Assembly: GCF_002097715.1 (NCBI RefSeq)
Contig: NZ_CP020737.1
Coordinates: 1,178,001-1,242,000 of the forward strand
Source of the DNA: Burkholderia ubonensis subsp. mesacidophila
GTDB lineage: Bacteria; Pseudomonadota; Gammaproteobacteria; Burkholderiales; Burkholderiaceae
Reading direction: 5' to 3'
DNA length: 64,000 nt
The notes below the pieces were generated by a model. That model had not been told where the DNA came from. It searched no databases and was given only the letters and a program-made list of their open reading frames with translations. Both the position numbers and the translations under genes were made by a program. Position 1 is the first letter of the stretch; every line of letters starts with the position of its first letter. This document shows, one piece after another, positions 40,794 to 45,376 of the stretch.

Positions 40794-40874
40794 CCGGCGT
40801 CGCGGCCGCCCGCCTCGCTTGTGGCAGGGCGGTCGACGCGGCACAATTGCGAATCCTTTACTGTCCCGGATGCC

Positions 40875-41462
40875 ATGCCGTTCAATTTCCCGATTTTCCT
40901 GACGTGGGTGCGGATCGTGCTGATTCCGCTCGTCGTCGGCGTGTTCTATCTGCCGGACACGGTGATGGGCGGCGCGCACCGCAACCTCGCGGCGGCGCTG
41001 ATCTTCATCCTCGCCGCGCTGACGGACTGGTTCGACGGTTACCTGGCCCGCAAATGGAATCAGACGTCGTCGTTCGGCGCGTTCCTCGACCCGGTCGCGG
41101 ACAAGCTGATGGTGACGGCCGCGCTGCTGATCCTCGTGCAGATTTCACGCGTCGACGCGGCGATCGCGCTCGTGATCGTCGGCCGCGAAATCGCGATCTC
41201 GGCGCTGCGCGAATGGATGGCGCAGATCGGCGCATCGAAGAGCGTCGCGGTGAACCAGCTCGGCAAGTTCAAGACCGCATGCCAGATGGTCGCGATTCCG
41301 ATGCTGCTGTACTACGGGCCGCTGCCGCTCGGTTTCGCGACGCTCGACACGCGCGTATGGGGCGAGTGGTTGATGTATCTCGCGGCAGTGCTGACGATCT
41401 GGTCGATGCTGTACTACATGAAGCTCGCGTGGCCGCAGATTCGCGAGCGCAGCCGCGTGTGA
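40875..41462 (+). CDS. pgsA: CDP-diacylglycerol-glycerol-3-phosphate 3-phosphatidyltransferase
   Basis: A 195-residue integral membrane enzyme making phosphatidylglycerophosphate, the committed step to phosphatidylglycerol and cardiolipin. The CDP-alcohol phosphatidyltransferase motif spans DWFDGYLAR and FGAFLDPVADK. About five hydrophobic segments are visible. It is 81 bp downstream of uvrC, a common pairing, and upstream of the tRNA genes. Confidence 0.96.
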   Translation: MPFNFPIFLTWVRIVLIPLVVGVFYLPDTVMGGAHRNLAAALIFILAALTDWFDGYLARKWNQTSSFGAFLDPVADKLMVTAALLILVQISRVDAAIALVIVGREIAISALREWMAQIGASKSVAVNQLGKFKTACQMVAIPMLLYYGPLPLGFATLDTRVWGEWLMYLAAVLTIWSMLYYMKLAWPQIRERSRV

Positions 41463-41517
41463 CGCGGCTTGCGATGCCGGGGCGGAGAATTTTTTGGAAA
41501 AAGGGCGCGAAAAACCC

Positions 41518-41546
41518 TTGACACCCGAATGCGCCTTCGACATAAT
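41518..41546 (+). promoter_or_regulatory. Strong sigma-70 promoter of the tRNA-Gly cluster
   Basis: A perfect TTGACA (41518-41523) and CATAAT (41541-41546) are separated by 17 bp. Transcription would start near 41553, 45 bp before the first tRNA-Gly. Confidence 0.85.
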
Positions 41547-41597
41547 CTCGCTTCTCCGCTGCACGACGAAGTGAGTGTGGCGAAGCAGAAGCAGCAT

Positions 41598-41673
41598 GCG
41601 GGAGTAGCTCAGTTGGTAGAGCGCAACCTTGCCAAGGTTGAGGTCGCGAGTTCGAGACTCGTCTCCCGCTCCA
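41598..41673 (+). tRNA. tRNA-Gly (GCC), copy 1
   Basis: A 76-nt tRNA: acceptor GCGGGAG pairs with CTCCCGC, discriminator T, and an encoded CCA at 41671-41673. The anticodon loop TTGCCAA gives anticodon GCC. Confidence 0.97.
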
Positions 41674-41721
41674 GGTTTCTGGCGGCGCGTTGTACGGCAA
41701 GCGCTGCAATTGCAGGGCAAC

Positions 41722-41797
41722 GCGGGAGTAGCTCAGTTGGTAGAGCGCAACCTTGCCAAGGTTGAGGTCGCGAGTTCGAGACTCGTCTCCCGCTCCA
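41722..41797 (+). tRNA. tRNA-Gly (GCC), copy 2
   Basis: Identical in sequence to copy 1. The preceding spacer is nearly identical to the spacer between copies 2 and 3, which shows tandem duplication of a unit of about 124 bp. Confidence 0.97.
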
Positions 41798-41846
41798 GGT
41801 TTTTTGGCGGCGTGTTGTACGGCAAGCGCTGCAATTGCAGGGCAAC

Positions 41847-41922
41847 GCGGGAGTAGCTCAGTTGGTAGAGCGCAACCTTGCCAAGGTTGAGGTCGCGAGT
41901 TCGAGACTCGTCTCCCGCTCCA
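41847..41922 (+). tRNA. tRNA-Gly (GCC), copy 3
   Basis: Third identical tRNA-Gly with encoded CCA. All three probably form one transcript that continues to tRNA-Cys and ends at the terminator at 42097. Confidence 0.97.
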
Positions 41923-42020
41923 GACACTGGGGAAGCAACGCTTCCCTTTTTGTTTGATGAACCGACGGTCATCAAATAAATCTGTTGCTTGCCGGCATGG
42001 CGAGTGAACAGTCCGCTTAC

Positions 42021-42094
42021 GGCGCGATAGCAAAGCGGTTATGCAGCGGCCTGCAAAGCCGTTTAGGCCGGTTCGACTCCGGCTCGCGCCTCCA
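42021..42094 (+). tRNA. tRNA-Cys (GCA)
   Basis: A 74-nt tRNA: acceptor GGCGCGA with TCGCGCC, encoded CCA, and the anticodon loop CTGCAAA gives GCA. A degenerate copy of its 3' half lies 2.5 kb downstream (44579-44621), marking it as a probable insertion target. Confidence 0.96.
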
Positions 42095-42096
42095 GA

Positions 42097-42128
42097 AAAA
42101 GCCCCGCTCAGGCGGGGCTTTTCTTTTT
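42097..42128 (+). terminator. Terminator of the tRNA transcript
   Basis: AAAAGCCCCGC/GCGGGGCTTTT stem with TCAG loop and a T-rich tail, immediately after tRNA-Cys. A related hairpin follows the tRNA-Cys remnant at 44625. Confidence 0.9.
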
Positions 42129-42266
42129 TCTGCGCCGTTTCTCCCTAAGCCACTCCCTGACGTTCCTGTCGACGCGTATGTCGCTCGCGTCGCGCAACGG
42201 GAAACGATCTCGACGACGCTGGACGCCATTCGCGAGTATCTGCGTCGCGCATCGGTGCCCGAATGA
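42129..42266 (+). pseudogene. Possible C-terminal coding remnant
   Basis: A 45-codon stretch ending in TGA has coding-like, GC3-rich codon use. Its sequence (for example VDAYVARVAQRETI and LDAIREYLRRASVPE) loosely resembles the C-terminal helices of a glutathione S-transferase-like protein. It has no own start or ribosome-binding site and begins just past the tRNA terminator. The rest of 42267-42354 shows nothing recognisable. Confidence 0.2.
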
Positions 42267-42434
42267 CGTTGGAGCGAACGACCGCCGCCCCAAAAAGCAG
42301 GACAACCAGAGGTCAATTCCACCCAGGACTGATCGATCTGGTCTCGCGCCAATGAACTGACAAAAATGCTGCTATTTGTTGAAAGGCGAGATGCATTATA
42401 TGTGTATATTGAAATTATTGCGCTTATATATACT

Positions 42435-42491
42435 TTGACATGAAATTACCCTGAATTTATCGAGATAATGTTATTATATTTTCTCGATAAA
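42435..42491 (+). promoter_or_regulatory. AT-rich promoter and operator-like inverted repeat of the collagenase gene
   Basis: A perfect TTGACA (42435-42440) lies 17 bp before TATCGA (42458-42463). A 10-bp perfect inverted repeat, TTTATCGAGA (42456-42465) and TCTCGATAAA (42482-42491), overlaps the -10 region and ends just before the GAGGG ribosome-binding site. It could be an operator for a dimeric repressor or a 5' leader hairpin. The whole 42355-42505 stretch is far more AT-rich than the genome. Confidence 0.5.
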
Positions 42492-42510
42492 AATAACCGA
42501 GGGTAAGAAA

Positions 42511-44454
42511 ATGCTAATAAGTGAGGTGTCTCGAAAAACCCGTCGCTGGTCGGCCGCCGTGGCGTTGTCGGTATTCGCGGGGCTGGTCGGCACTGCGTCG
42601 GCCAACACGCAGCCGACGCAGCAAAAGCAGGCGCGCATGCCGCGCATGCCGCGCATGCCGCAGAACCTGCCGGTGTCACCTGAACAGGCCGAGTACAACC
42701 TGCCGCTCAGCGAGCAGGATCGCGCGGTGCTGACCAAGCCTTCGCAGCAGAAGCAGTCGCTCAAGCGCAGCAAACGCAGCGCATCGGGTGTCGATTGCCG
42801 CGACATGTCGGCGATGACTCAGTATCGCGGCGCGGCACTCGCCGACTACATCGCGAATCTTCCCGATTACGAATGCCATTACGGCCTGTTTTCAGTCGAT
42901 AAAGCGTTGGCCGCGCAGATTTTTAATGCCGAAAATGTGCACGCCGTCGCGAGTCGTTTCGTGCAGGAGGTATATCGATATGACGCAAGCAATTTGATTT
43001 TGGTCAATTTGCTGATTTATCTGCGTTCCGCATATTATCAGTATGATGTATCGGGCATCGCCAATCCGATTCCGAATCTCGCGGTGCAGCTGCGTCCGTA
43101 TATCAAGCAAAGCCTCGAGGGTGATGCACTCTATCGCGAGAATTCGCGTGCGCCGAGCACCGCGAACGAGCTGATGAAGCTCATCACGAACATGAGGGAC
43201 GAGGCGTACTACCTGCCGTCACTGAAGAACCGTGTTGCCTTCTACACGGCGAGCGCGACGAATCCGCAGGCGGCGGCGCCGCTGCTGCAGCGGAGCGCGG
43301 CGGGCGGTTTCACCGGCTTGCTGACGGTGTTCTTCTACGCGCATCAGCGCAGCGGCGCGCAGCAGATGCTCGACAGCGACGCGACGCTGCCGGAGACGCT
43401 CAATCGCTTCGTCACCGCGAACCGCGCGAGCCTGTCGAACACGAGCGCCGCGTATCAGCTCGCCGACGCGGCGCGTGAGACTTACCGCTTTCTCCGTTAT
43501 CCGACGCAGAAGCCGCGCGTGAAGAAGATGATCCAGGACATGCTCGCGTCGGCGAGCATGACGGGCGCGGACAGCGATCTGTGGCTCGCAGCGGCGGAAG
43601 CGGTCGACTACGGTGACCCCGGCAACTGCGCGGAGTACGGCACGTGCGACTACAAGAAGCGTCTGGCCGACGCGGTGCTGACGCATCGTTACGCGTGCAG
43701 CGCGAGCGTGCGCATTCTCGCGCAGGACATGACGGTGCCGCAGTTGCAGTCGGTATGCACGGCGGTCGCTCGACAGGACGATTACTTTCACCGGATGATG
43801 AAGACCGGACGCAAGCCGGTCGCGGGCGATCGCAACGACACAATCGAGCTCGTCGTCTTCGACGACTACGCGAACTATCGCAAGTACGCGTCGGTGATCT
43901 ACGGAATCAGCACCGACAACGGCGGCATGTATCTCGAAGGCGATCCGTCGGCGCCCGGCAATCAGGCGCGCTTCATCGCCCACGAGGCGTCGTGGCTGCG
44001 ACCGGAGTTCAAGGTGTGGAACCTCGAGCACGAGTTCACGCATTACCTTGACGGCCGCTACGACATGGCGGGCGACTTCACGGCGAGCACCGCGAAGCCG
44101 ACCGTCTGGTGGATCGAAGGCGTTGCCGAATATCTGTCGAGAAAGAACGACAATCAGGAATCGATCGACGTCGCGCACACGGGCGCATACCGCTTCTCGG
44201 ACGTGCTCGAGACGCGTTACTCGTCGAGCGACTACGTCGCGCGCGCATACCGGTGGGGCTATATGGCGACGCGCTTCATGTTCGAGCGCCATCGCGCCGA
44301 TGTCGACACGATCGTTTCTCGCTTCCGCGCGGGCGATTACGACGGCTATGAGAACTATGTCGCGTACATCGGCCGCCGCTACGACAGCGAGTTCGTCGAT
44401 TGGGCGCGCAATGCAACGACGTCGGGCGAGCCGCCGCTGCCGACGGCGCGATGA
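42511..44454 (+). CDS. Secreted collagenase-like metalloprotease (peptidase M9)
   Basis: A 647-residue M9 microbial collagenase-type enzyme predicted to be exported. The signal peptide ends at ASA (about residue 31), followed by a (MPR) triple repeat from ATGCCGCGC units at 42637-42663. The zinc site is HEFTH (His507, Glu508, His511), with the third ligand probably Glu536 in WWIEGVAEY, 25 residues on. The N-terminal activator-type helical region precedes the catalytic domain. PKD and collagen-binding domains of clostridial or Vibrio enzymes are absent. GAGGG lies just upstream of ATG 42511. Codon use is AT-richer around 42890-43080. Substrate specificity is inferred from family. Confidence 0.88.
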   Translation: MLISEVSRKTRRWSAAVALSVFAGLVGTASANTQPTQQKQARMPRMPRMPQNLPVSPEQAEYNLPLSEQDRAVLTKPSQQKQSLKRSKRSASGVDCRDMSAMTQYRGAALADYIANLPDYECHYGLFSVDKALAAQIFNAENVHAVASRFVQEVYRYDASNLILVNLLIYLRSAYYQYDVSGIANPIPNLAVQLRPYIKQSLEGDALYRENSRAPSTANELMKLITNMRDEAYYLPSLKNRVAFYTASATNPQAAAPLLQRSAAGGFTGLLTVFFYAHQRSGAQQMLDSDATLPETLNRFVTANRASLSNTSAAYQLADAARETYRFLRYPTQKPRVKKMIQDMLASASMTGADSDLWLAAAEAVDYGDPGNCAEYGTCDYKKRLADAVLTHRYACSASVRILAQDMTVPQLQSVCTAVARQDDYFHRMMKTGRKPVAGDRNDTIELVVFDDYANYRKYASVIYGISTDNGGMYLEGDPSAPGNQARFIAHEASWLRPEFKVWNLEHEFTHYLDGRYDMAGDFTASTAKPTVWWIEGVAEYLSRKNDNQESIDVAHTGAYRFSDVLETRYSSSDYVARAYRWGYMATRFMFERHRADVDTIVSRFRAGDYDGYENYVAYIGRRYDSEFVDWARNATTSGEPPLPTAR

Positions 44455-44578
44455 TCAAGCGCGGTCGCCTGCGTCCAGGTGCGGGATGACGGCGACGCGT
44501 ACGATGCGGCCCCGGCTGTTGGCGACGATCGTTTTCGGTTCTCGGTAGTCTGCCCATTGACAAGAGCAGCTCGTTGAT

Positions 44579-44621
44579 CTGCAAAGCCGTTCAGGCGAGG
44601 TCGACTCCGGCTCGCACGCCA
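44579..44621 (+). repeat. Degenerate copy of the tRNA-Cys 3' half (att-like)
   Basis: Aligns to 42051-42094 of tRNA-Cys without gaps until the last bases. CTGCAAAGCCGTT (13 bp) and TCGACTCCGGCTCGC (15 bp) are identical, with about six mismatches elsewhere. The 5' half of a tRNA is absent, so it is not a functional gene. The surrounding 44455-44732 region has no other recognisable gene. Confidence 0.85.
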
Positions 44622-44624
44622 CGC

Positions 44625-44656
44625 AAAGCCCCGATGCTTCGGGGCTTTCTCTTTTT
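44625..44656 (+). terminator. Terminator after the tRNA-Cys remnant
   Basis: AAAGCCCCG/CGGGGCTTT stem with a 6-nt loop and a T-rich tail. It shares the GCCCCG core with the genuine tRNA-Cys terminator, so it was probably duplicated along with the tRNA fragment. Confidence 0.75.
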
Positions 44657-44732
44657 CCTGCTTCGCAACGCGTCATTGACGGTTACGCGCGCGCATTGCC
44701 GGGACGCGAACGCGCAGGAATACGCGCGCAAC

Positions 44733-45236
44733 TCAGCCTTGCGCCTTCTCCCATGCGTGCTCGACGAACACGCGGCACAACGCTTCCATCCCTAGCCGGT
44801 CTTCGTCATCGAAACGCGCGGCGACCGGGCTGTCGACATCCCATACGCCGATCAGCGTGCCGTCGCTCGCGACGAGCGGCACGACGATCTCGGATTCGGA
44901 CGCCGCGTCGCATGCGATGTGGCCGGGGAACGCGTGCACGTCGCGCACCACCTGCGTCTCGCGCGTCTGCGCGGCCGTGCCGCACACGCCCTTGCCGAGC
45001 GCGATCCGCACGCACGCGGGCTTGCCCTGGAACGGGCCGACCACGAGCTCGGCGCCGTCGAAGAAATAGAAGCCGGCCCAGTTGAGCCGGTCGAGCGCGT
45101 GATAGACGAGCGCGGCCAAGTTCGCTGCGTTGGCGATCAGGTCGCGTTCCGACTCGACGAGCGAGCGGGCCTGCTCGACGAGCGTCGCGTATTGATCGGC
45201 CTTGGAGGCGTGCGGGTCGTTGGACAGCGTGAACAT
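44733..45236 (-). CDS. msrC: Free methionine-(R)-sulfoxide reductase (GAF type)
   Basis: A 167-residue GAF-domain enzyme that reduces free methionine-R-sulfoxide. Three cysteines at 75, 85 and 109 have the same 10- and 24-residue spacing as the catalytic and resolving cysteines of E. coli fRMsr (84, 94, 118). The surrounding ALGKGVCGTAA and HIACDAASESEIVVPL match the family. The start is ATG 45236 (MFTLSNDPHASK). Monocistronic. Confidence 0.9.
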   Translation of the reverse strand: MFTLSNDPHASKADQYATLVEQARSLVESERDLIANAANLAALVYHALDRLNWAGFYFFDGAELVVGPFQGKPACVRIALGKGVCGTAAQTRETQVVRDVHAFPGHIACDAASESEIVVPLVASDGTLIGVWDVDSPVAARFDDEDRLGMEALCRVFVEHAWEKAQG

Positions 45237-45376
45237 GGCTGGAATGCGGAAGGGTTGTCGAAAATGCGCGATGCGCGCATGCGGCAGTCTACGGCACATG
45301 CCGCCGATGTGCAGCGCGCGTTGACGACGGTTCGCGCGTCATCGCGCACGCGAATGCGCAAGCGCGCGCCGCGGCT

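What the first reader, a model, noticed from the sequence alone, without database searches (positions are those of the whole stretch)
42021..44656. Decayed tRNA-Cys island carrying a single secreted collagenase
The tRNA-Cys 3' half (42051-42094) recurs as a degenerate copy at 44579-44621, with 13- and 15-bp identical blocks, and each copy is followed by a related GCCCCG hairpin terminator. The duplicated part runs from the anticodon loop to the 3' end, which is the usual footprint of tyrosine-recombinase integration at a tRNA. Between the copies lie an AT-rich stretch and one M9 protease, with no integrase. This looks like an old insertion stripped down to its cargo, and it may be a hotspot with different cargo in other strains.
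Basis: partly seen in the sequence, partly recalled or inferred. Interest (0 to 1): 0.75.

Follow-up and report, generated by a model that had tools for sequence, protein, structure and literature searches.

The report
Dead tRNA-Cys island with surviving collagenase
A phage-type mobile element once inserted itself into a cysteine tRNA gene of a Burkholderia and then decayed, leaving a fragment of its integrase, the displaced half of the tRNA gene and one intact collagenase gene, at a site where relatives carry an almost empty spot, other cargo or complete elements.

Summary
The window has an intact tRNA-Cys (42021-42094) and a decayed copy of its 3' half near 44579-44621; between them lies an intact M9 collagenase gene under purifying selection. 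"No integrase" needs correcting: 42141-42262 is a fossil of codons ~22-81 of a tyrosine recombinase. Intact members of that integrase family sit directly after the same tRNA-Cys in 5 of 65 Burkholderia genomes, and in 6 of 7 other-genus genomes with a strong match. A tRNA-Cys 3' copy was found in 17 of 65 genomes; identity starts sharply at tRNA nt 27/28. Five genomes have near-empty sites (118-217 nt); the longest tRNA-to-msrC intervals are 46-50 kb, partly prophage. The collagenase is at this site in 3 of 65 genomes. In one (G010) it lies in a ~2.5-kb patch resembling G062 inside flanks resembling G008, so the cargo apparently moved on by homologous recombination after its vehicle died; a second apparent swap (G063/G064) supports this. 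tRNA-sited islands in Burkholderia, one at tRNA-Cys, were described in 2008, so this is a new member of a known kind. Not shown: that the collagenase was the original element's cargo.

The parts
40821..41462 (+). pgsA (CDP-alcohol phosphatidyltransferase), left anchor
   Evidence: PF01066; match in 64 of 65 genus genomes
41598..41922 (+). three tRNA-Gly genes (41598-41673, 41722-41797, 41847-41922)
   Evidence: ARAGORN
42021..42094 (+). intact tRNA-Cys (gca), the attachment site; nt 27-74 (42047-42094) are the part repeated
42098..42130 (+). GCCCCG hairpin with T run, terminator-like, after the intact tRNA-Cys
   Evidence: no expression data
42141..42262 (+). integrase fossil: codons ~22-81 of the tRNA-Cys tyrosine recombinase with two internal deletions
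   Evidence: tblastn E 1.2e-7; protein score 115 against a maximum of 57 in 1000 shuffles and a DNA alignment; not reported by the genome-wide search at E <= 1e-10
42355..42510 (+). AT-rich upstream region of the collagenase (28.8% GC)
   Evidence: partly shared with G010 and G062
42511..44454 (+). M9 collagenase, 647 aa, intact, HEFTH at residue 507
   Evidence: PF01752 and PF08453; dN/dS 0.14-0.15 to G062 and G010
44556..44560 (+). ATTGA, possible remains of the element-end motif
   Evidence: TTGA at one fixed place in the 12 other aligned copies, 3 nt off here; weak
44579..44621 (+). displaced, decayed tRNA-Cys 3' half (far end of the island)
44625..44657 (+). second GCCCCG hairpin, terminator-like
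44658..44732 (.). sequence that in the near-empty site of G048 follows the tRNA-Cys terminator
44733..45299 (-).
   Evidence: PF01590; match in 63 of 65 genus genomes; the name msrC is recalled, not from a call

Best explanation
This is the relic of a mobile element of the phage/island type that used a dedicated tyrosine recombinase to insert into the part of tRNA-Cys from the anticodon arm to the 3' end. The element supplied its own copy of tRNA nt 27-74, so the tRNA stayed whole, and pushed the original 3' half and what followed it to the right (shown by the copies in other genomes and by the near-empty site of G048; the chemistry is inferred from the integrase family). The integrase gene next to the tRNA has decayed to a fossil of about 120 nt (shown). 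What lay between was lost except one collagenase gene, which is intact and under purifying selection (shown; that it was the element's cargo is inferred). Without an integrase the island cannot excise by itself (inferred). Its cargo appears since to have moved between species by homologous recombination with the conserved tRNA-Gly/tRNA-Cys array and msrC as anchors (patch in G010 shown; mechanism and direction inferred).
For: Integrase fossil. The 12 genus genomes with integrase matches of at least 71% identity each have one directly after tRNA-Cys; G013 has further pieces about 9 kb on (positions). Of 7 other-genus genomes at E <= 1e-60, 6 have it directly after tRNA-Gly-Gly-Cys. tRNA-Cys 3' copies in 17 of 65 genomes (9 of these built the profile, 8 did not, the window among the 8). 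Identity begins at nt 27 in 10 of 13 and nt 28 in 13 of 13 aligned copies, 1 of 13 at nt 26. Near-empty sites in G048, G047, G059, G040, G027, G048 tested with a control. Collagenase at this site only in G000, G062, G010, which group together (87/95; G010 with G062 95/99). G010: interval 96-97% like G062, most flank windows 96-99% like G008.
Against: No genome of the 65 has an intact integrase of this family and the collagenase together at this site. The window is the only collagenase interval with a fossil: none was reported for G062 and G010 at E <= 1e-3. Viral contigs gave no match to the collagenase patterns. G010 has no tRNA copy detected. The genus search at E <= 1e-10 did not report the window's fossil. 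The 42 nt after the window's intact tRNA also match G048's, so the left junction is not cleanly element-derived. The seventh other-genus integrase (41-43% identity) is by tRNA-Val.
Confidence: 0.85

Rival explanations
1. An island did insert and decay here, leaving the integrase fossil and the tRNA copy, but the collagenase came later and separately, by recombination or another insertion into the already decaying island.
For: No intact element with both genes was found in the 65 genomes. G062 and G010 carry the collagenase without a detected integrase fossil. Collagenases at 16 other places in the genus stand in mostly unshared neighbourhoods with no tRNA gene in the 11-kb stretches, so this gene moves by other means too.
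Against: In the window the gene lies between fossil and copy, and in G062 between the tRNA and a remnant. The three collagenases at this site form one group. No second junction such as an IS was seen around the gene in the window by reading; this was not searched for with an IS library.
Confidence: 0.25
2. A small element that is still mobile: integrase supplied in trans by other elements moves the interval between the tRNA and its copy.
For: Short intervals without an intact integrase recur between tRNA-Cys and a copy, e.g. G044, G041, G032.
Against: The window's copy is 78% identical over 54 nt with a changed start and lacks the element-side motif at its usual place; strong genus matches to the integrase family are absent from G000, G062 and G010.
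Confidence: 0.04
3. No site-specific insertion: the tRNA fragment is a plain tandem duplication or gene-conversion product.
For: Gene conversion between tRNA regions is possible; terminators on both sides are alike.
Against: Integrase fossil; same sharp start in 13 aligned copies; the near-empty site in G048.
Confidence: 0.03

Closest known systems
tRNA-mediated site-specific recombination islands of Burkholderia pseudomallei (71 islands in five strains; GI8d of MSHR305 listed at tRNA-Cys), PMC2612704 (passages seen)
   Same: Insertion at the 3' part of a tRNA gene that leaves a short direct repeat downstream; tRNA-Cys is one listed site; the paper notes islands whose repeat has disappeared.
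   Different: Here a relic with an integrase fossil and one gene. The paper compares five strains of one species; the genus-wide comparison of this site, the integrase lineage and cross-species swaps were not in the passages I saw. What GI8d contains, and whether it is at this same tRNA-Cys gene, I did not see.
Collagenase BPSS0666 on island GI14, chromosome 2 of B. pseudomallei (PMC2612704 and PMC4275268; passages seen)
   Same: A collagenase by annotation, reported on an island in this genus.
   Different: Another chromosome and island, and no tRNA is given for GI14 in the table passage seen. Whether it is the orthologue of the window genome's second copy (C2:2345595-2347478) was not tested.
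Temperate phages with the same integrase family (35 IMG/VR contigs; Pseudomonas phage 8P, 45.5% identity) and the elements of 43-46 kb between tRNA-Cys and copy in G005, G025, G033
   Same: Same integrase family; in the three genomes the integrase is directly after tRNA-Cys; terminase and portal by Pfam in G025, homologues clustered in G005 and G033. In 27 of 35 viral contigs the integrase match starts within 4 nt of a contig end, in at least 4 of these with the match itself cut.
   Different: No phage structural gene was seen in the window's interval.

Membership tests
tRNA-sited genomic island (tRNA-SSR type) | insertion next to a tRNA gene with a direct repeat of its 3' part at the far end | tested here: met
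tRNA-sited genomic island (tRNA-SSR type) | integrase gene next to the tRNA | tested here: inconclusive
   only a fossil in the window, 42141-42262; intact at the same place in 5 of 65 genus genomes
tRNA-sited genomic island (tRNA-SSR type) | empty site in relatives | tested here: met
   near-empty in 5 of 59 genomes with both anchors on one contig; G048 matched with a shuffle control
tRNA-sited genomic island (tRNA-SSR type) | able to excise or transfer itself today | not testable with these tools
   no intact integrase in the interval; presumed immobile
prophage | phage structural genes within the element | tested here: not met
   ORF list of the interval shows the collagenase as the one clear protein gene; terminase and portal only seen in other genomes
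M9 collagenase | M9 catalytic and N-terminal domains, HEXXH zinc motif | tested here: met
   PF01752 and PF08453; HEFTH at residue 507; best PDB match 7esi_A, collagenase unit, E 2e-91
M9 collagenase | collagen cleavage | not tested
   needs an assay

The most novel reading that the evidence does not exclude
The tRNA-Cys to msrC interval is a two-tier exchange port. First-tier vehicles (phages and islands of one integrase lineage) deliver genes and die there. Afterwards the surviving genes keep travelling between species as alleles, by homologous recombination between the conserved tRNA array and msrC. Evidence: the collagenase patch in G010, and G063/G064, which share a 2,576-nt stretch of this interval at 96.9% and its methionine-aminopeptidase gene at 99.8%, while their pgsA is 94.5% and their msrC 86.6% identical.
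Probability: 0.5. Interest if true: 0.6.

Novelty: new member of a known kind. Interest (0 to 1): 0.45.

Why it matters
It turns a guess from one degenerate repeat into a documented set of states at one site: near-empty, complete element with integrase, truncated integrase, single-gene relic. That gives a place where the decay of islands, and the question of which cargo outlives its vehicle, can be measured across a genus. It also suggests that a gene from a dead island can go on spreading by recombination between conserved flanks, so counting islands without an integrase as immobile would miss part of gene flow.

Tried and rejected
Chance repeat: rejected. Match to unrelated tRNAs: rejected. 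Vertical inheritance of the collagenase at this site across the genus: rejected, 3 of 65. Collagenase as a phage gene: a scan of viral contigs with it found no pattern match, which is weak evidence. Origin from the genome's own second collagenase: not supported; that copy is 83-84% identical while copies at other loci in G034 and G059 are 91-93%. Rfam on 41500-45300: only the four tRNAs reach their gathering score; five other listed matches lie below theirs. Pfam on the 93-aa ORF that holds the fossil: no family. The second unit in G062 (1.4 kb between two remnants): only G062 has it whole among 65, other matches cover parts. The genome-contig scan with msrC returned mostly distant organisms; its loci were not analysed. 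Paper searches: one search listed one paper, on Haloquadratum, not read; PMC7042692 has tRNA-Cys only in a list of core genes.

Limits: one genome per species, so no within-species comparison. The bootstrap of the pgsA+msrC tree had not settled, 8 of its 64 rows (one of 65 genomes had no row) had under half the columns, and msrC is partly recombined in G010. Cargo names rest on single ORFs picked by length; no Pfam match for 5 of 10 and 2 of 8, and some may be shadow frames. Of the 17 copies, 13 were put in the alignment; G013, G019, G035 and G062, whose copies are partial or weak, were left out. G062's second remnant scored only 7.7 bits with the profile, within shuffle range; it rests on the flank match.

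Full report
What is there. The copy is far beyond chance: E 1.9e-12 in a BLAST of the whole genome; 30.6 bits with a profile built without it, against a best of 9.6 bits in five shuffles of all intervals (421,421 bases before shuffling). It fits tRNA-Cys (score 29) and no other tRNA held (at most 11; 28 distinct sequences).

An integrase fossil. Five genus genomes (G005, G025, G033, G036, G053) have an intact integrase of 397-399 aa directly after tRNA-Cys (PF00589 tested on two of the five). The window's 42141-42262 aligns with codons ~22-81 of this gene in the same place and direction, at DNA level too, with two internal deletions; the protein score is 115 against a maximum of 57 in 1000 shuffles. 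Truncated or broken pieces of the same gene after tRNA-Cys were also found in G006, G013, G019, G020, G021, G022, G030, G052 and G064. The 12 genus genomes with matches of at least 71% identity each have one directly after tRNA-Cys; G013 has further pieces about 9 kb on. The other 12 genomes listed there have only matches of 57% or less; G019's 45% piece is after tRNA-Cys too, the others are other integrases elsewhere. Among 249 family genomes drawn (some of them from the genus), 7 of other genera match at E <= 1e-60; 6 of these have the integrase directly after a tRNA-Gly-Gly-Cys array, the seventh and least similar is by tRNA-Val. The family is also on 35 IMG/VR contigs, in 27 of them starting within 4 nt of a contig end.

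The attachment site. In 13 aligned copies identity with tRNA-Cys begins abruptly: 1 of 13 agree at nt 26, 10 of 13 at nt 27, 13 of 13 at nt 28. Before it stands non-tRNA sequence with TTGA at one fixed place in the 12 copies other than the window's; the window has ATTGA 3 nt off. Copies were found in 17 of 65 genomes; nine of those helped to build the profile, so eight are independent finds, the window among them.

The hotspot. In 59 of 65 genomes both anchors lie on one contig; the distance from tRNA-Cys to the msrC match runs from 118 to 50,119 nt. Near-empty are G048, G047, G059, G040 and G027. Without terminator and gene end, the near-empty site of G048 matches what follows the copy in the window (score 17, maximum of 1000 shuffles 9) and not what follows the window's intact tRNA terminator (score -1), as expected if the former is the displaced original. 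The first 42 nt after the two tRNA genes are also alike. A methionine aminopeptidase (PF00557 tested on one) stands in the fetched stretches of 45 of 65 genomes and a GNAT-like protein (my reading of the sequence, no family search) in 46 of 65; the window and G010, G047, G048, G059, G062 lack both (some fetched stretches do not cover the whole interval). Other contents by Pfam: a GGDEF/dCache protein (scanned in G036 and G044; clustered in 7 genomes), TIR-domain proteins in G015 and G053, a LysR regulator in G041, terminase and portal in G025. Distances from tRNA to copy go from 1,449 nt (G019, partial copy) to 45,560 nt (G025); in the five genomes with an intact integrase they are 6,635 nt or more.

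The collagenase. It is intact, with HEFTH at residue 507 and dN/dS of 0.139 and 0.15 to its counterparts at this site in G062 and G010. Of 65 genomes 17 have a collagenase of this type, 3 of them at this site. The three group together (87/95; G010 with G062 95/99), nearest by path to copies at other loci in G059 and G034. At the 16 other places there is no tRNA gene in the 11-kb stretches and neighbours are mostly not shared. That the collagenase came with the integrase-bearing element is likely but not shown.

Movement after decay. In 500-nt windows G010 is mostly 96-99% identical to G008 on both sides (some windows 88-93%), but the collagenase interval has no match there and is 96-97% identical to G062; the change-over lies in the tRNA-Gly/Cys stretch on the left and within about the first 100 nt of msrC on the right, with some windows further out that also favour G062. 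G063, sister of G062 in the pgsA+msrC tree, instead has the aminopeptidase block, 96.9% identical over 2,576 nt to G064 and 99.8% in the aminopeptidase gene, where the other genomes listed reach at most about 87% and 91%; pgsA and msrC of the same two genomes are 94.5% and 86.6% identical, while G063 and G062 are 98.6% and 98.3%. Both cases fit allele replacement between conserved flanks. The direction of either transfer is inferred.

Prior knowledge. tRNA-mediated site-specific recombination with 3'-end repeats, including an island at a tRNA-Cys (GI8d, strain MSHR305), was described for B. pseudomallei in 2008 (PMC2612704, passages). That paper also lists a collagenase on island GI14. My searches (open-licence PMC papers only) listed no paper whose title or shown abstract deals with this genus-wide site, the integrase lineage or the collagenase relic; apart from passages of PMC2612704, PMC4275268 and PMC7042692 I saw listings only. 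I rate it a new member of a known kind, with the two-tier exchange port as its boldest open reading.

Noticed in passing
G062 interval, L170:3641-5092: A second unit of about 1.4 kb with two small ORFs lies between two tRNA-Cys remnants after the collagenase. The window's single remnant has a left neighbour like G062's first and a right neighbour like G062's second, so the unit was gained in G062 or lost in the window.
   Followed up: partly
G015 (L126:2883-3641 -) and G053 (L161:5538-6461 -): TIR-domain proteins, in G053 of the CAP12/Pycsar effector type, between tRNA-Cys and its copy: possible anti-phage defence cargo.
   Followed up: no
G002, G005, G007, G033, G036, G044, G045 at tRNA-Cys: A GGDEF/dCache-type protein recurs at this site in 7 genomes: between tRNA and copy in G005, G044, G045, beyond the copy in G033 and G036, no copy found in G002 and G007.
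   Followed up: partly
G024 contig C13 and G052 contig C4: pgsA lies about 30 kb (G024) and 26 kb (G052) before tRNA-Cys, against about 0.6 kb in the window: possible further islands between pgsA and tRNA-Cys.
   Followed up: no
G010, between collagenase and msrC (L122): A short stretch with inverted ends (TGAACTGCACCC ... GGGGGCAGTTCA) stands where the tRNA copy would be; by reading, an IS-like scar that may have removed it.
   Followed up: no
window 42456-42491: 14-nt inverted repeat just before the collagenase start in the AT-rich stretch, possibly regulatory.
   Followed up: no
G013 contig C109 (L192): Two sets of integrase pieces about 9 kb apart on one contig, suggesting two decayed elements in tandem.
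   Followed up: no
G000:C2:2345595-2347478 (L173): The window's genome has a second collagenase, 83-84% identical, with a counterpart in G062 (C1).
   Followed up: partly
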